Positions 1,346 through 47,226 of a stretch of 64,000 nucleotides of DNA are shown here, in pieces. Position numbers and translations under genes: made by a program. Numbering within the stretch: the first letter of the stretch is position 1; every line of letters begins with the position of its first letter. The DNA is from Abditibacteriaceae bacterium (lineage in GTDB: Bacteria > Armatimonadota > Abditibacteriia > Abditibacteriales > Abditibacteriaceae), in contig JAFAZH010000039.1 of NCBI GenBank assembly GCA_019239895.1, forward strand, positions 1 to 64,000, read 5' to 3'. The notes below the pieces were generated by a model that saw only the letters and a list, made by a program, of their open reading frames with translations, ran no database searches and had not been told where the DNA came from.

Positions 1346-4027
1346 TCATTTATGCTTGCGACGCTTTGGTGCTGGTTTCGTTGACGGCTGCCGATTATTC
1401 TTCAAGTTGTCTGGTTTAGTATTAACCTTCGGACGACGCCCTGCTGATTTTAATGAGGTCACAGCGCGGCTGTCAACACTTTCAACCTCATTTTCTTTTG
1501 CGCTGCTATTAGTCGCTGCGTTTATTACCCCATTATGTGTGGTGTTAAACATCTCATCTGGAAAATTAGCAGATACATCCGCCTCATGCTTAACTTCACC
1601 CGCCAACGATTGCAATACAGGGTCGGCCATCGTGCCCGCCCGCCCATCGGTGGCGGGCGGCGCACCAGAGGCAGGGGCTGGTCGCAGGGTCAATTCCAGC
1701 TTGGGGAGCGTGGTCGCACGCTGGCCGCCATCCCCCCACGCCGAAGGCACCGGGCGCGCGGCGGGGCGTCCACTGCGCAAATCGGCATCACCCTGCCCTA
1801 AGCTGTGCTGGCGCGCCTGAGTCATCAGCCATTGTTGGCAACGAAACGGCGCTTCTTTGGGGCCGGGTCTGAGTCGCCAATAATCACCATCTGGACGGAT
1901 GCAGCGGGCTTTAATATTATCTTTGAGAGCAGCCCCCAGAACTTCATCTCGTAAACGCACCTTCAACGCTTCGTTCTCGACCGGAAAAATAACTTCAACC
2001 CGTTGAAAGAAGTTGCGCGGCATCCAATCAGCGGAGCCACAATAAATCTCATCCGCGCCATTGTTATAGAAGTAGAAGAGCCGTGAATGCTCCAGGAAGC
2101 GGTCTATAATCGAGCGCACGCGAATATTCTCGCTCACCCCCGGCACCCCCGGACGCAGACAACACACCCCGCGCACAATCAGGTCAATCTGCACTCCGGC
2201 CTGGGATGCTCGGTACAGCGCCTTAATAATACCGGGGTCTACCAGAGCATTCATCTTGGCAATAATTTGCGCTTGGGGCTTTGACTTTTTGCCCTTGGCC
2301 GAACTGCCTTTTGCCTGACGTTGCGCATTGGTCGTCTCACGTTCAATGAGACGCAGAAACTCTTCTTGCACCCCAAAGGGCGCGACCCACAACTTCTCCA
2401 TGCCGGGAAATTGACTCATCCCGGTCAGCAGGTTAAACACCTTGGCCACATCTTCTCCAATGTCGGGTCGCGCCGTGAGCATCCCTACATCCGTGTACAG
2501 ACGGGCTGTAATCTCATTGTAATTGCCGGTGCCCATGTGAACGTAACGATGTATCTCATCGCCCTCGCGCCGCACCACCAGGGCCAGTTTACTGTGCGTT
2601 TTCAGACCGACTAATCCATACAACACATGCACCCCGGCCTGCTCCATCGCACGCGCCCACTGGATATTATTTTCTTCGTCAAAGCGGGCTTTTAGCTCTA
2701 CTAAGGCCGTCACCTGCTTGCCGTTTTGCGCGGCTCGCATTAAGGCACGCACAATCGGCGAATCACCCGATGTCCGATAAAGCGTTTGTTTAATGGCCAG
2801 GACGTTCGGGTCATCCGCCGCCATTGTGATGAAATCAATCACGCTCTTAAAGCTTTCATAAGGATGATGCACCAGAATATCTGCGTGGCGGATCGCTGCA
2901 AACAGTTCATCGGGCGATTCCACTTGCCGTAACTCCGATGGCACCGCCGGAGTAAAAGTTGGGTCTTTTAAATCGGGCCGATTTTCCGCGCCATAGACGG
3001 CCATTAGCCGCGTTAAATTAATGGGGCCATCCACTTCATAGAGGTCAATCGGCTCCAGCTCAAAAGTGCGCAGTAAAACCTCTACGACTGCCGGGTCACA
3101 ACCACGTTGCACTTCTAAGCGCACCGCATCGCCACGTCGCCGCCGCTGCAACTGCATCTGCATCGCTTCCAGGAGGTTATCGGCCTCATCTTCATCCAGA
3201 TACAGTTCGGAGTTACGGGTGACCCGAAAGGCATAGCACCCTTCAACACATAAGCCGGGAAACAAATCGCCGATGAACTCTGAAATAATCGAAGAGAGGA
3301 AAACGTAAATTTTGCGTTGCGCAGGAGCGATAGCGGCAGGCACCGCCACCAGACGCGGCAGGGCGCGGGGCACCTGCACCACGCCAAAGCGGGTCGCCTC
3401 GTGCTGCTCATCATAGCGCAAGCCATTCATGGCCCCCGGAGTGTCGGGTATCGAAAGCGCCACCGCCAGATTCAAGCTTTTATTGAGCAATTGGGGAAAG
3501 GGGTGCGCCGGGTCAATCGCTAAAGGCGTCAGCACCGGGAAAACCTCGCGTCGAAAGTAATCTGCGGCCCACTGTTGCCCCGGCTCGCTGAGGTCATTAA
3601 TCGTTAAGAGATCAATGCCTTCCGCCGTGAGTCCCGGCACGATTTCGCGGTTGTAACACTGATACTGATCGCGCACCATGCGTTGCACACGGATGGCAAT
3701 GGCATCAAGAGTCTGCTGTGCCGTAAGTCCATCCTCTTCGGCTACATTGGGCCGCGTTTCCGCCTGCTGCTGCAACCCCGCCACACGCACCTCAAAAAAC
3801 TCGTCCAGGTTCGAGGCCACAATCGAGAGAAACTTCAACCGTTCCAGCAGGGGGTTAGTAGCATCTTGCGCTTCTTCCAGCACGCGCTGATTAAACTCTA
3901 ACCAGGACAATTCACGGTTAATGAAATATTCAGGTCGGTCGAGGTCACGCACCGCCTGCACCGTCTGGCGCAGCGATTTCTTAGGAGTCTTCTTAACCGG
4001 CTTCTTCGCAGACTTACTTTGACTCAT
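1346..4027 (-). CDS. ppk: Polyphosphate kinase 1
   Basis: This 893-residue protein is PPK1, which builds inorganic polyphosphate from ATP by way of a phospho-histidine. The N-terminal domain motif (NRELSWLEFN, 37-46) and both catalytic-site histidines are visible: H478 in KTHSK and H647 in EHSR. The PPK core ends near residue 735, at about the family length of 690-740. A further 158 residues form a low-complexity tail rich in Ser, Ala, Pro and Asn that ends in the basic run PKRRKHK. A Lys/Gln-rich insert also occurs at about 568-586. The tail is unusual and could tether the enzyme to nucleic acid or to polyphosphate itself, but that is a guess. The ATG start is followed by a Lys-rich leader segment. 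Confidence 0.96.
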   Translation of the reverse strand: MSQSKSAKKPVKKTPKKSLRQTVQAVRDLDRPEYFINRELSWLEFNQRVLEEAQDATNPLLERLKFLSIVASNLDEFFEVRVAGLQQQAETRPNVAEEDGLTAQQTLDAIAIRVQRMVRDQYQCYNREIVPGLTAEGIDLLTINDLSEPGQQWAADYFRREVFPVLTPLAIDPAHPFPQLLNKSLNLAVALSIPDTPGAMNGLRYDEQHEATRFGVVQVPRALPRLVAVPAAIAPAQRKIYVFLSSIISEFIGDLFPGLCVEGCYAFRVTRNSELYLDEDEADNLLEAMQMQLQRRRRGDAVRLEVQRGCDPAVVEVLLRTFELEPIDLYEVDGPINLTRLMAVYGAENRPDLKDPTFTPAVPSELRQVESPDELFAAIRHADILVHHPYESFKSVIDFITMAADDPNVLAIKQTLYRTSGDSPIVRALMRAAQNGKQVTALVELKARFDEENNIQWARAMEQAGVHVLYGLVGLKTHSKLALVVRREGDEIHRYVHMGTGNYNEITARLYTDVGMLTARPDIGEDVAKVFNLLTGMSQFPGMEKLWVAPFGVQEEFLRLIERETTNAQRQAKGSSAKGKKSKPQAQIIAKMNALVDPGIIKALYRASQAGVQIDLIVRGVCCLRPGVPGVSENIRVRSIIDRFLEHSRLFYFYNNGADEIYCGSADWMPRNFFQRVEVIFPVENEALKVRLRDEVLGAALKDNIKARCIRPDGDYWRLRPGPKEAPFRCQQWLMTQARQHSLGQGDADLRSGRPAARPVPSAWGDGGQRATTLPKLELTLRPAPASGAPPATDGRAGTMADPVLQSLAGEVKHEADVSANFPDEMFNTTHNGVINAATNSSAKENEVESVDSRAVTSLKSAGRRPKVNTKPDNLKNNRQPSTKPAPKRRKHK

Positions 4028-4074
4028 GTATTTAATGATAACTGGCTTTGTCGTGTCAGATGTTAACTATCAGT

Positions 4075-4291
4075 CGGGCCTGTAAACGACCCGGCAGGTT
4101 GGGTGCCCACAGCACAGCATCAACATGCTGTGCTGTGGGCTGGAAGTCTAAAGCCGACCGTCCTTTGGACGGTACACGAATAGGTCAGTACATGGCAAGC
4201 AAGGGCACGATAAATCATGCCCCTACGTGTGGCGTCCAACGGACGCTTAACCAACGGCCTTCCTGGCGGGGCTTTTACAGCCCCGGCTTTT
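4075..4291. repeat. Modular palindromic element, copy A
   Basis: A complex stem-loop element fills the gap between ppk and the HAD gene. The outer stem pairs the GGGCCTGTAAACGACCCGG side (from 4076) with the GGGGCTTTTACAGCCCCGG side (to about 4286). Inside are a long hairpin (4110-4140, CCCACAGCACAGCAT and its complement), GACCGTCCTTTGGACGG and GCGTCCAACGGACGC. It is the inverted-orientation relative of copies at 17456-17589 and 19786-19970. No protein is encoded by it. Confidence 0.8.
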
Positions 4292-4326
4292 CTTGACCAT
4301 CTTCCAATCCTGTTTATACTTCAAAC

Positions 4327-5067
4327 GTGCAACCCTTTTTGATTTTTGACGCTTACGGCATCCTGGTTGAGTTAGATGATTTTTATGGTCGCTTACAGCG
4401 CGGTTTTGGACAGCATGGTGTCACTTTGCCATTTGAGGTAGTGCAGCGGGCCGCACATCAGGAAATGCGGCATTATATGGCTAACGCCATTCATGTCAGC
4501 GACTCGGCAAGTTGGTTGAGACTGCGCCGTGATTGCGCCCAGATTTTAGCCGATGCCTTACGCTCACAAGGCCATCAACTGCCCTTTGGTACCGATACCA
4601 CTTTAGAGATTCTGAGCGAAGCCTTAGTGTTTCACGCCTTTCCTGAAGCGCATGAGACGCTGGAAGAGTTACAGCGACGTGGCATTAAAATGGGCGTGCT
4701 TTCTAACTGGGACTATCAATTGCCCTCCATTCTGCAAGCAGTGCAACTGGATACATTCTTTCAGTTCATTGTCACTTCGGCGGAAGCGGGAGTGGAAAAG
4801 CCTGATTTAAAATTCTTTGCGTGTGGCGTGGAAAAGGTTCACGCTCTCGCTCCTGATGTGAAATTATCCCACTGCTTTTATATTGGCGATCACTACGAGA
4901 AAGATGTATTGCCTGCTCGTGCAGCGGGTTTAATACCCCTCTGGTTAGTCCGCGATCAGCGCGACCTCGCATCAGGCGACATTCACGAGGCGCAAGATGC
5001 AGTGATTCGCCTGCAAAGCCTGCGCGATTTGTTGAGCCTTCCTGCGCTTGGCATGAGCGCAAAATGA
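4327..5067 (+). CDS. HAD superfamily hydrolase (haloacid dehalogenase-like)
   Basis: This 246-residue cytoplasmic phosphatase or dehalogenase of the HAD superfamily has all four motifs. Motif I is FDAYGIL near the N-terminus, with the nucleophile Asp; the DAYG form is typical of the L-2-haloacid dehalogenase branch. Motif II is GVLSNWD (Ser), motif III is the Lys of EKPDLKFF, and motif IV is YIGDHYEKD. A helical cap of about 90 residues lies between motifs I and II. The start is a GTG directly at the motif-I strand, and no strong Shine-Dalgarno sequence is visible. The substrate cannot be told from sequence. It stands alone between a palindromic element and the mrp gene. Confidence 0.88.
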   Translation: MQPFLIFDAYGILVELDDFYGRLQRGFGQHGVTLPFEVVQRAAHQEMRHYMANAIHVSDSASWLRLRRDCAQILADALRSQGHQLPFGTDTTLEILSEALVFHAFPEAHETLEELQRRGIKMGVLSNWDYQLPSILQAVQLDTFFQFIVTSAEAGVEKPDLKFFACGVEKVHALAPDVKLSHCFYIGDHYEKDVLPARAAGLIPLWLVRDQRDLASGDIHEAQDAVIRLQSLRDLLSLPALGMSAK

Positions 5068-43105: not shown

Positions 43106-44479
43106 ATGCCTTTTCTTCGTGCCGGACAGCTTGCTCGCTCTACGCCTACAGCTCGCCTTGATGATCCTCTGGGCCTGGTAGCCGAAAATCTGCGCGCGTC
43201 TAATTATGGGGCAATTCCCGTGTTAGACCGTGGCTTCATTGCCGATAACATGGGCGAAGTGCAGGCCGGGGCGCGGGTGTTAGGTTTAGTGGACGAGCGC
43301 GATTTGTCTCATTATGCTCTGCCCGTCCTGGCGCAGCGTCAAGCCTTGAGTGAAGCTACCTCGCAACGGGTGCAAAGCGTATTACCCGGCGAGATGATAC
43401 TGGGTGAGACCCAGAGCCATGCTCACTATGGCTCCAATGGGTCGGGGCTGAACGGGCACAACTCCAATGGATACCATCCATCCGCGCAGGATACGATAGA
43501 CGAAGAGGTGGCAACGATTGATTTTGCCTCGCTTACAGCCCGTGATGTGATGCGCCGCGATATTGGCATTGTGCCCGCTGTTTTCTCCTTGCAAAATGCC
43601 CTCATGACGCTTGAACGTTACGATGCCCTTGCTCTACCCGTCATAGATACAATGGGTTCCTATCGCGGCATGATTTCGCGTTCGGATGTGCTGGCGGCGC
43701 TGGGTGGCCAGGTGCGGCCTCCGGTAGTCGGTGGCATGGCAACACCCATAGGCGTCTGGCTGACAACTGGCACCATCAGCGCTGGTGCGCCGCCGTTAGG
43801 TCTCTTTTTGTCGGGCATGACGATGGCAGCCTGTTTGATGATGGCTCAAATTATCATGCTGATTGGCCTTAATGCCATCAGCTCGGAGTGGGGCGCGATG
43901 TTTTATTCAGGCCGCCTGGGAGCCACCTCGGAAAGCGGCAGTTTATTAAATCTAATCGTGACCCTGGTTCAATCGTTGCTGTTCCTGGTGCTAATGCGGA
44001 GCTTGCCGTTATCGGGCATTCATGCCGCGGAACACCAAACCGTATGGGCCATTGAGCGTGGGTTGCCTTTAACTCCTGAATACGTGGCGCAAATGCCACG
44101 CGCCCATCCCCGTTGCGGCACTAACCTGGTAGCTCTCGGTGGCCTGATTCAGATTTCATTTCAGCATCTACCAGAGATTAATTCGGGCACTGTCTTAGCG
44201 ACTTTACTCTTTATCTATCTGGCCTGGCGCAACTTCGGCACGCTTTTACAAGAATGGTTCACCACCAAGCCCGCCACGCCGAAGCAGTTGGCCAGTGGCA
44301 TCAAAGCGGGCCGGGAGTTAATGGAAAAATATCAAGAGCAGCCGCATGTCTTGACTTCATTCGGCTCTCGCCTGTTTAATTCGGGTCTGATTATGTCGGC
44401 GTTAGGGATGATATTGACGCTGGGCGTCTTTAACTTTTTAGAAGATTATGTGGCGCGTTTAATCTTTTTCGGTTCTTAA
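43106..44479 (+). CDS. CBS-pair and DUF1385 fusion membrane protein
   Basis: This 457-residue protein joins a CBS-domain pair (about 1-205, e.g. NYGAIPVLD, ARVLGLVDERDLS, DALALPVIDTMGSYRGMIS) to a DUF1385 (YqhQ-like) membrane domain. The latter has GIHAAEHQTVWAIERGLP and HPRCGTNLV and about five hydrophobic helices. CBS pairs bind adenine nucleotides; DUF1385 has no established function. An Asn/Gly/Ser-rich spacer splits the first CBS from the second. The fusion suggests a membrane process gated by nucleotide level. It is 29 bp upstream of the ArgRS-like gene. Confidence 0.85.
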   Translation: MPFLRAGQLARSTPTARLDDPLGLVAENLRASNYGAIPVLDRGFIADNMGEVQAGARVLGLVDERDLSHYALPVLAQRQALSEATSQRVQSVLPGEMILGETQSHAHYGSNGSGLNGHNSNGYHPSAQDTIDEEVATIDFASLTARDVMRRDIGIVPAVFSLQNALMTLERYDALALPVIDTMGSYRGMISRSDVLAALGGQVRPPVVGGMATPIGVWLTTGTISAGAPPLGLFLSGMTMAACLMMAQIIMLIGLNAISSEWGAMFYSGRLGATSESGSLLNLIVTLVQSLLFLVLMRSLPLSGIHAAEHQTVWAIERGLPLTPEYVAQMPRAHPRCGTNLVALGGLIQISFQHLPEINSGTVLATLLFIYLAWRNFGTLLQEWFTTKPATPKQLASGIKAGRELMEKYQEQPHVLTSFGSRLFNSGLIMSALGMILTLGVFNFLEDYVARLIFFGS

Positions 44480-44508: not shown

Positions 44509-46218
44509 ATGGATGAGCCGCCCCAGAGATATGTGACGCGCCATTTACTACAGAGGGCTTTACAGGAAGCGATTGAACAAGCCTGTCGCACCTATGAATG
44601 GAAGTTCAAAGATACAGGCGAGGTGCCACCATTCTGGGTCAAGCGGGCAGCGAATGGTCGGGGTGAGTTTGCTTCCAATGTCGCTCTGGTATTAGGTGCG
44701 GCTACAGGCATGGCACCACAGCGAGTGATTGAAACTTTACGATTGCATACAGCTTTAGAACATTATGGCTTGGTTCGAGGCGTGGCTATTGAGGAGGCGA
44801 AAGGGTTCTTGAATTTTCGCTTGGATGATAATTTTTTGAATGAGCAGGCGGCGCGCGCCGTGCGAGAAGGCGCGCGTTATGGCGCAGGCTCAACCCTGGC
44901 AGGCAGGCGCATCAATGTCGAATTTGTGTCGGCTGATCCCACCGGGCCGCTATCTATCTCCTATGGCCGCATTGCCGCCGTGGGTGAAGCTTTGTGTCGT
45001 GTCCTGGAGTTCCACGGGGCTGATGTGACCCGCGAGTTCTTCTTAAACGACGTGGAAACTTCTTCCAAAATGCGCCTCCTGGGAGAAAGTGTCGCGGCTT
45101 TCTACCTGGCCGCCTTTGGACGTGGTGCGGAATGGCCCGAAGGCGCATTGCAAGATAGCTTTGTGCGCAACGTGGCCGAGACAATCGTGCAGCGCGAGGG
45201 AACGGCTTATCTTTTAGTGCCCGACAGCGAACGCGCCGCCGCTTTTGCGCGTGAAGCGTGTGCCAGTGCAGTCGCCCGGCAAAAGCAGACCTTGCAAGAT
45301 TTCGGCGTGCGCTTTGATGTCTGGACTTCCGAAAACGCACTCAGCCGCGAGGGACGGATCACTGGCATTGTCAATAAATTGCGGGAGCGCGGCCACACCT
45401 ACGAGCGTGACCGCGCGGTTTGGCTGCGCACCACCAAATTCAGTGATGAGGCCGACCGCCCTCTCGTGCGAGCTAATGGGCAACCTACCTATCTCGCCGC
45501 AGACATCGCTTACCATGCCTTCAAAATGGAGCGTGGTTTCGACCTTGTGCTAAACATCTGGACAGCACAGCACCGGCCTTATGTGTTGCGCACGCGGGCG
45601 GCCCTGGAAGCGGCTGGTTATGGTGCCGATAAATTAGAAGTGCTGCTTTGCGAAGGAGTGCGGTTCTTACGTGATGGCGTCTTAGTGACTACGGGTAAGG
45701 GCGGGGAACCTATCACGCTTGGTGAAGCCCTCCGTGAAATTGATCGTGACACTCTGCATTTCCTGTTTCTGAATCAAGACTGGGACGAAGTGATTGAAGT
45801 CGAAACCGAAGTGGTGCGGCGTGATGATGAAAGTAATCCAGCTTATGCGGCTCGTCTGGTGCCTTCTCGCCTGGGCACCATGATCCGCGAATTGGAAGCT
45901 CAAGTGGGTCAGCACAACGGCACCAATGAGGCTGCTGAGACGGCCAATCAACTCAGCGATGAAGAGCGCGAGGTACTGCGGCTCGTGGCGGTGTGGCCCG
46001 ATGAAGTCGAAACTGCCGTTCAGTTACGTGAGCCACAGCGCATCGCAGGTTTCCTGGGCGATTTAGCTTCTACCGTCCGCCGTTTACTGGCTGCATCACG
46101 GCCTCATTCAGCTACTCCCATAGCGGCTCAGACACGCTTGCAACTGTTGCGTGCCGCTCAGATAACGGCTGTCAACGCCTTACACTTGTTAGGCATCGAA
46201 GCGAACTCCCATTTTTAG
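44509..46218 (+). CDS. Degenerate arginyl-tRNA synthetase-like protein
   Basis: This 569-residue protein follows ArgRS from end to end: an N-terminal Add-1-like domain, EFVSADPTGPL (138-148), ADIAYHAFKMERGFD and a DALR-like helical C-terminus. The catalytic signatures are lost. The HIGH-type HVGHGR is SISYGR (149-154), the GADH motif is TAQH (352-355), and the KMSKR site reads TTGKGG (394-399). The conserved NPxYYxQYAHAR is NPAYAARLVPSRL. The frame is intact with good codon use, so it is not a fresh pseudogene. I infer a non-aminoacylating paralogue; a standard ArgRS should exist elsewhere in the genome. Confidence 0.85.
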   Translation: MDEPPQRYVTRHLLQRALQEAIEQACRTYEWKFKDTGEVPPFWVKRAANGRGEFASNVALVLGAATGMAPQRVIETLRLHTALEHYGLVRGVAIEEAKGFLNFRLDDNFLNEQAARAVREGARYGAGSTLAGRRINVEFVSADPTGPLSISYGRIAAVGEALCRVLEFHGADVTREFFLNDVETSSKMRLLGESVAAFYLAAFGRGAEWPEGALQDSFVRNVAETIVQREGTAYLLVPDSERAAAFAREACASAVARQKQTLQDFGVRFDVWTSENALSREGRITGIVNKLRERGHTYERDRAVWLRTTKFSDEADRPLVRANGQPTYLAADIAYHAFKMERGFDLVLNIWTAQHRPYVLRTRAALEAAGYGADKLEVLLCEGVRFLRDGVLVTTGKGGEPITLGEALREIDRDTLHFLFLNQDWDEVIEVETEVVRRDDESNPAYAARLVPSRLGTMIRELEAQVGQHNGTNEAAETANQLSDEEREVLRLVAVWPDEVETAVQLREPQRIAGFLGDLASTVRRLLAASRPHSATPIAAQTRLQLLRAAQITAVNALHLLGIEANSHF

Positions 46219-46254: not shown

Positions 46255-47226
46255 ATGGCTGACGTTGTGTGTCTGGGAATCTTAGTCGCGGATGTAGTCG
46301 CCCGACCTGTTGATGAATACCCAAAACGTGGCCAATTAGTGCTTTGTGATGACTTGCATCCCTCGATTGGTGGTTGTGCGGCTAACACCGCGATTGGACT
46401 TCAGAAATTAGGTGTGGCAACGGGTGTGATGGGCAAAGTTGGCCGGGATGGATTCGGCGATTTTGTGCGCGATACGCTCCAGAGCCATCATCTTGATGTG
46501 CGCGGCGTCGCCACCGACGAACAGGTTGCAACCTCTTCAACAATGGTCATGGTAGCAAGTGACGGCGAACGGTCTTTTATCCATTACATCGGCGCGAATG
46601 CCGCATTTACCCCGGATGATGTGAACTGGGATTTACTCCGCGAGGCGAAATTGCTGCACATTGCAGGTTATTTTGTAATGCCTGGTTTCGATGGTGAGCC
46701 TTGCGCCCAGGTTTTGAAAAGAGCTAAAGCGATGGGGCTAAAAACTTCTCTAGATACAGCAGGCGATCAGAGCAAAATGTCCCTGGACGCCATACGCCCC
46801 GCCTTACCCTATGTGGATTACTTGGTGCCCAGTATTGAAGAAGCGCGCAGTTGCCTGCGGGATCGAAATAACGCTGAGACGCCAGAGCAAATTGCCCGCA
46901 TTTTTCAAGCGGAGGGAGCCGGAGTGGTGGCCCTCAAAATGGGTGAAGCGGGCAGCTACATCCGCACTGGTGAACAGGAGTGGACAATACCCCCTTTTCG
47001 CGTGCCAACGGTGGATGCCACGGGCGCGGGCGATGCCTACGCCGCAGGCTTTTTGGCGGGAGTGCTGCAAGGTTACGACTTACCCACAACAGGCAAGTTA
47101 GCCAATGCCGTGGGAGCCATGAGCGTGACCGCCGTTGGCACGGTGCAGGGCATCCGGTCGCTCGATGAAACCCTGACGTTTATCGAACGGCAAAGCGGTG
47201 CTGAGTTCTCAGTGCTGAGGCAGTAA
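46255..47226 (+). CDS. PfkB family carbohydrate kinase
   Basis: This 323-residue ribokinase-fold enzyme has the first signature SIGGCAANTAIGLQKLG and the second DATGAGDAYAAGF with the catalytic Asp. The sugar-binding N-terminus (LGILVADVVARPVDEYP) is typical of ribokinase and ketohexokinase relatives. Substrate unknown. AAGGAAAA lies upstream of the ATG and the gene starts 36 bp after the ArgRS-like gene, so the two may share a transcript. Confidence 0.93.
   Translation: MADVVCLGILVADVVARPVDEYPKRGQLVLCDDLHPSIGGCAANTAIGLQKLGVATGVMGKVGRDGFGDFVRDTLQSHHLDVRGVATDEQVATSSTMVMVASDGERSFIHYIGANAAFTPDDVNWDLLREAKLLHIAGYFVMPGFDGEPCAQVLKRAKAMGLKTSLDTAGDQSKMSLDAIRPALPYVDYLVPSIEEARSCLRDRNNAETPEQIARIFQAEGAGVVALKMGEAGSYIRTGEQEWTIPPFRVPTVDATGAGDAYAAGFLAGVLQGYDLPTTGKLANAVGAMSVTAVGTVQGIRSLDETLTFIERQSGAEFSVLRQ

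What the first reader, a model, noticed from the sequence alone, without database searches (positions are those of the whole stretch)
44509..46218. ArgRS-like protein without HIGH and KMSKS motifs
Seen directly: the fold segments of a 569-residue ArgRS are present, but HVGHGR is replaced by SISYGR (codons read TCT ATC TCC TAT GGC CGC), the ADH of the GADH motif by AQH, the KMSKR loop by TTGKGG, and the C-terminal VERM-type end by NSHF. An ArgRS cannot normally activate arginine without the HIGH histidines. The frame is uninterrupted over 1.7 kb, so selection has kept it. Known paralogues of synthetases have taken other jobs (HisZ, PoxA/EpmA, YadB/GluQ). I infer an uncharacterised ArgRS-derived protein that might bind tRNA-Arg, arginine or another amine, perhaps as a sensor. 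It sits directly after a CBS-DUF1385 membrane protein and before a PfkB kinase, so nutrient sensing is one idea.
Basis: partly seen in the sequence, partly recalled or inferred. Interest (0 to 1): 0.78.

Follow-up and report, generated by a model that had tools for sequence, protein, structure and literature searches.

The report
Retired arginyl-tRNA synthetase kept as paralogue
This bacterium's old enzyme for loading arginine onto tRNA was replaced by a second one, but the old gene was kept, has lost the parts that use ATP and read the tRNA anticodon while keeping most of the arginine pocket, and the same thing happened several times in its phylum, so the leftover protein probably has a new arginine-related job.

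Summary
The ORF at 44509-46218 is real and is an ArgRS-fold protein (AlphaFold pLDDT 89, top PDB hits all ArgRS). The genome has a second, canonical argS elsewhere (G000:C10). The window gene sits at the phylum's ancestral argS locus (DUF1385-argS), so it is the displaced resident enzyme, not a fresh duplicate. What separates it from working ArgRS is loss of the KMSK loop and of the anticodon-recognition residues. In 19 resident copies that coexist with a second ArgRS, the anticodon pair YxxY is lost in 17 (0 of 41 sole copies) and the KMSK lysine in 16 (2 of 41), but the putative arginine pocket E/Y/D/H is kept in 18. A single origin of all degenerate copies is rejected. Close pairs in relatives show purifying selection, strongest on the Rossmann core (omega 0.05-0.10). 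Best reading: a non-synthetase, ATP-less, arginine-pocket protein under selection; arginine binding is inferred, its partner unknown. Nutrient sensing from the neighbours is not supported: they are old synteny.

The parts
44509..46218 (+). ArgRS-derived paralogue (569 aa), the displaced resident type-B ArgRS
44548..44823 (+). Arg_tRNA_synt_N domain (D-loop/A20-binding domain in ArgRS), weakly conserved here
   Evidence: Pfam residues 14-105; 0.50 of conserved positions kept
44902..45735 (+). class I catalytic (Rossmann) domain, the best kept part
   Evidence: Pfam residues 132-409; Rossmann halves keep 0.74 and 0.79 of conserved positions
44920..44922 (+). E138, equivalent of yeast ArgRS E148 (arginine pocket)
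   Evidence: ungapped alignment to 1bs2; kept in all b copies
44953..44964 (+). SISY in place of the HIGH tetrad
45490..45504 (+). Y328-D332, equivalents of yeast Y347 and D351 (arginine pocket)
   Evidence: alignment; kept in 16 of 17 other b copies and all f1 copies
45571..45573 (+). H355, at the yeast Q375 position; H in all 41 sole type-B ArgRS examined
45688..45705 (+). TTGKGG in place of the KMSKR loop
   Evidence: model pLDDT under 50 at residues 396-399
45820..45873 (+). RDDESNPAYAARLVPSRL, new motif conserved in the family, replacing the anticodon-reading ENPVYYVQYAHAR helix
45913..46203 (+). DALR anticodon-binding domain remnant
   Evidence: Pfam residues 469-565; 0.40 of conserved positions kept in residues 441-569
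46204..46215 (+). C-terminal NSHF replacing the usual terminal ...PERM
43106..44479 (+). CBS-DUF1385 membrane protein, ancestral upstream neighbour of argS
46255..47226 (+). PfkB sugar kinase, downstream neighbour; also downstream of argS in some relatives

Best explanation
The gene is the original (type B) arginyl-tRNA synthetase of this lineage, still at its native locus. A different, canonical ArgRS (type A) now does the charging. The old protein keeps the ArgRS fold and most of the arginine pocket but has lost the KMSK loop, the HIGH histidines and the residues that read the anticodon. Shown: second argS, native locus, lost motifs, kept core, purifying selection in relatives, repeated independent loss. 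Inferred: it no longer makes Arg-tRNA; it binds arginine (or an arginyl end) without ATP chemistry and acts on a partner, in the manner of the HisRS-derived regulator HisZ.
For: Canonical second ArgRS at G000:C10 with SLHIGH and intact anticodon motif. DUF1385-argS adjacency in sole-ArgRS and degenerate genomes alike. f1 copies group with the sole ArgRS of the same class at no likelihood cost (p-AU 0.78). Of 96 sites nearly fixed in sole ArgRS, f1 keeps 36/43 in the Rossmann core against 19/53 elsewhere, p 3e-6. Anticodon YxxY lost 17/19 vs 0/41, KMSK lysine 16/19 vs 2/41, pocket E/Y/D/H kept 18/19. All degenerate copies as one clade rejected, p 0.0005. Core omega 0.05-0.10 in close pairs of b copies, like working ArgRS. 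Several b copies have deleted most of the N-terminal domain yet keep the core. New fixed motif in f1 at 438-455. Fold confirmed.
Against: No ligand, partner or phenotype is known. In f1 the pocket Asn equivalent to yeast N153 is Asp (D143), so the ligand may have changed. Pocket residues could be kept for folding: they are also among the most conserved in ArgRS generally. In f1 itself dS is near saturation (1.8-2.9), so omega there is only rough. Phylogeny-corrected pair tests have only 4-5 pairs and cannot reach significance. The gene can be lost: some type-A genomes have no b copy. One relative (G005) keeps the tRNA domains and deletes the core instead.
Confidence: 0.6

Rival explanations
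1. It works on arginyl-tRNA made by the other enzyme: like cyclodipeptide synthases (TyrRS-like, no HIGH or KMSKS), it holds the arginyl-A76 end and transfers, edits or shields it.
For: Pocket and the Rossmann core that also holds A76 are kept while ATP and anticodon elements are lost. Cyclodipeptide synthases show such a route exists (own knowledge).
Against: N-terminal (A20) and anticodon domains are the most degraded parts, largely deleted in several relatives; no new fixed nucleophile was identified in the core.
Confidence: 0.15
2. It is a dying pseudogene that has not yet broken.
For: Related lineages show truncated or absent copies (G005, G003); the f1 copies evolve somewhat faster than the type-A copy (dN 0.43-0.61 vs 0.36-0.42).
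Against: Intact 1.7-kb frames in three genomes with dS near or above 1.8; omega 0.09-0.20 in close degenerate pairs elsewhere; new residues fixed in f1 at sites invariant in ArgRS.
Confidence: 0.1
3. It is still an active but relaxed ArgRS, perhaps for other tRNAs or conditions.
For: Sole ArgRS of this phylum evidently work without HIGH histidines; the window copy retains K397.
Against: KMSK arginine lost in all f1, K397 lost in both sisters, anticodon residues Y447, Y450, Y527 and terminal M569 all lost; a complete canonical ArgRS is present.
Confidence: 0.1

Closest known systems
Type-B bacterial ArgRS (e.g. Campylobacter jejuni ArgRS, PDB 3fnr; TIGR00456)
   Same: fold over the whole length, domain order, arginine-pocket residues E/Y/D/H, native locus
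   Different: HIGH, KMSK, anticodon-reading residues and C-terminal Met lost; scores under the family cut-off
HisZ (HisRS-derived regulatory subunit of HisG)
   Same: non-catalytic synthetase paralogue tied to its amino acid (analogy only)
   Different: class II, with a known partner; here class I, displaced resident gene, partner unknown
NrtL, ArgS-related anticodon-binding protein (NCBIfam NF045898)
   Same: derived from ArgRS
   Different: 327-position model; window protein scores 77 bits against a cut-off of 340
Cyclodipeptide synthases
   Same: class I synthetase fold without HIGH/KMSKS (own knowledge)
   Different: TyrRS-like, another lineage; here ArgRS pocket and domains

Membership tests
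Arginine-tRNA ligase (TIGR00456 equivalog) | score above curated cut-off 261.65 | tested here: not met
   238.9 bits; 235.1 in genome search
Arginine-tRNA ligase (TIGR00456 equivalog) | ArgRS fold and three domains | tested here: met
Arginine-tRNA ligase (TIGR00456 equivalog) | KMSK-type loop (SKR/GKR) present | tested here: not met
   TTGKGG; R lost in all f1
Arginine-tRNA ligase (TIGR00456 equivalog) | anticodon-reading Tyr residues and terminal Met | tested here: not met
   Y447A, Y450L, Y527L, M569F
Arginine-tRNA ligase (TIGR00456 equivalog) | aminoacylation activity | not testable with these tools
   needs purified protein
Non-catalytic synthetase paralogue (HisZ-like kind) | coexists with a canonical synthetase of the same specificity | tested here: met
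   G000:C10 argS
Non-catalytic synthetase paralogue (HisZ-like kind) | gene under purifying selection | tested here: met
   relatives' pairs, omega 0.09-0.20 overall; f1 only rough because dS is near saturation
Non-catalytic synthetase paralogue (HisZ-like kind) | amino-acid pocket kept and binds the amino acid | tested here: inconclusive
   residues kept except N to D143; binding not measured
NrtL (NF045898) | score above cut-off 340 | tested here: not met
   77.4 bits

The most novel reading that the evidence does not exclude
In a phylum where no arginine repressor ArgR was found (0 of 24 genomes), displaced resident ArgRS genes have repeatedly been converted into ATP-independent arginine-binding regulators, keeping the Rossmann pocket and shedding tRNA and ATP parts: recurrent birth of the same pseudo-synthetase after horizontal replacement.
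Probability: 0.3. Interest if true: 0.8.

Novelty: new variant of a known kind. Interest (0 to 1): 0.6.

Why it matters
A 2022 review of synthetase duplications (PMC9437257) summarises functions for 15 families and never mentions ArgRS by that name in its text. Here an ArgRS-derived protein is kept, and the same partial decay recurs after separate replacements, with intermediates (intact copy plus new enzyme in G063 and G111; degenerate in their relatives). That gives a natural time series for how an essential enzyme is retired and re-used. It also shows that many apparently working ArgRS lack HIGH histidines, a caution for motif-based calls of inactivity.

Tried and rejected
Operon hints: DUF1385 upstream and a roughly 900-aa secreted-looking protein downstream in relatives turned out to be ancestral argS neighbours, found beside sole ArgRS too. 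HIGH loss as a test of inactivity: rejected. Single origin of degenerate copies: rejected. Weak second hits in family f20 looked like further copies but fit CysRS by length and place in the model, and hits of about 850 aa fit LeuRS (inferred, not scanned). NrtL literature: no relevant paper held. ArgR as competing sensor: none found in 24 genomes, which is only circumstantial. Source organisms of type-A ArgRS were not traced; horizontal origin rests on subfamily, patchy distribution and a non-native locus.

Full report
OBSERVATION. The frame 44509-46218 (+) is open over 569 codons. Pfam assigns the three ArgRS domains, and the argS equivalog model scores it 238.9 bits, just under its cut-off of 261.65. 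An AlphaFold2 model from an alignment of 40 sequences has mean pLDDT 89 and pTM 0.90; the KMSK loop (396-399) and the last residues are among the few parts under 50. Against the PDB the twenty best chains are ArgRS, first Campylobacter jejuni 3fnr (TM 0.90 over the target).

SECOND ARGS. The genome (G000, 93.7% complete, 0.16% contamination) holds one other ArgRS, at C10:158884-160611, 503 bits, with SLHIGH, an intact anticodon motif and a terminal EKM. I call it type A and the window's lineage type B. In the phylum most genomes have type B only, and in those tested it is then the only ArgRS. That the wider group corresponds to Armatimonadota in GTDB is my inference.

NATIVE LOCUS. A DUF1385 protein lies directly upstream of type-B argS across the phylum, in sole-ArgRS genomes (for example G010, G016, G029, G048, G059) and in genomes with degenerate copies. 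So the window gene is the displaced resident. Type-A genes lie elsewhere, except in genus g61 of family f30, where type A now sits beside DUF1385. The type-A sequences fall into two deep groups with several family-level clades, consistent with repeated acquisition, though outside donors were not traced.

HIGH IS NOT THE TEST. Among 41 sole type-B ArgRS, 17 lack both HIGH histidines (for example SVVN in G026, TVGS in G122), and searches with the argS model found no other ArgRS in the ones tested. PMC5919687 notes few ligand contacts of the HIGH histidines in structures, especially of the first, and puts their role in the ATP transition state.

WHAT DOES SEPARATE. In 19 type-B copies that coexist with type A (a 20th, G005, has lost the core and was left out), the anticodon YxxY pair is lost in 17 (0 of 41 sole copies) and the KMSK lysine in 16 (2 of 41). 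The pocket set E138/Y328/D332/H355 is complete in 18. These positions align to yeast E148, Y347, D351 and Q375 in the printed alignment to 1bs2; that those yeast residues bind arginine, and that Y491, Y565 and M607 read the anticodon loop, is from my knowledge of the yeast ArgRS structures, not tested here. In the window's family the yeast N153 equivalent is Asp (D143), a change fixed in all three genomes.

SELECTIVE KEEPING OF THE CORE. Of 96 columns nearly fixed in sole ArgRS, all three family copies keep 36 of 43 in the Rossmann core and 19 of 53 elsewhere (Fisher p 3e-6). The same bias is seen in most other degenerate copies; in G018, G078, G022, G044 and G092 most or all of the N-terminal domain is gone while the core is kept. 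NG86 dN/dS in three close pairs of degenerate copies is 0.09 to 0.20 overall and 0.05 to 0.10 in the core. More distant pairs in f5 and f9 are looser (0.40-0.47 overall). In the window's family dS is 1.8 or more, so there only the intact frame and the pattern of fixed residues speak: the anticodon helix has become RDDE(S/T)NPAYAAxLxPSRL, among the best conserved stretches of the three proteins, whereas the four HIGH positions read SISY, SFPS and PLGA.

RECURRENCE. A tree of 59 type-B sequences rejects one clade for all copies that coexist with type A (p 4e-30) and for the degenerate ones (p 0.0005); joining the window's family with the sole ArgRS of its own class is not rejected. Stages are visible: G063 and G111 have type A plus an intact type B; G138, of the same genus as G063, has a degenerate one. 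Long branches make exact placements unsure, and tests corrected for relatedness have too few pairs to reach significance.

MECHANISM. Shown: displacement, motif loss, fold, core conservation, selection in relatives, recurrence. Inferred: loss of charging; binding of arginine or an arginyl end without ATP; action on a partner. HisZ, which has no adenylation activity and mediates feedback by histidine on HisG (PMC9437257), is the nearest model for how it may work. No ArgR was found in 24 genomes of the phylum with the Pfam C-terminal model, which rang in 8 of 14 controls; this leaves room for another arginine sensor but proves nothing.

VERDICT. A real, selected, ArgRS-derived protein, best filed as a new variant of the known kind 'synthetase paralogue with another job'. 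It fails membership as an ArgRS; the arginine-sensor idea is plausible and untested.

Noticed in passing
L085 (G026), L095 (G122), L021-L027 and others: 17 of 41 sole ArgRS in the phylum lack both HIGH histidines (SVVN, VVQ, TVGS, TVAG and similar), including one-contig genomes; apparently working ArgRS without HIGH.
   Followed up: partly
L064:6062-7231 (G005): A type-B remnant with the Rossmann core deleted in frame but N-terminal and anticodon domains kept: the reverse of the other remnants.
   Followed up: partly
L048 (G076), L044 (G115): Type-A ArgRS sits beside DUF1385, at the native argS locus: replacement in place.
   Followed up: no
L076:5766-8429, L067:2912-5605, L071:7392-10127: A conserved protein of about 900 aa, apparently secreted, downstream of argS in several families has no Pfam or NCBIfam match.
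   Followed up: partly
24 genomes of the phylum: No ArgR C-terminal domain (PF02863) found in any genome tested.
   Followed up: partly
L070 (G022), 228-1958 and 3290-4540: Type A and a very degenerate type-B remnant lie close together on the same contig.
   Followed up: no
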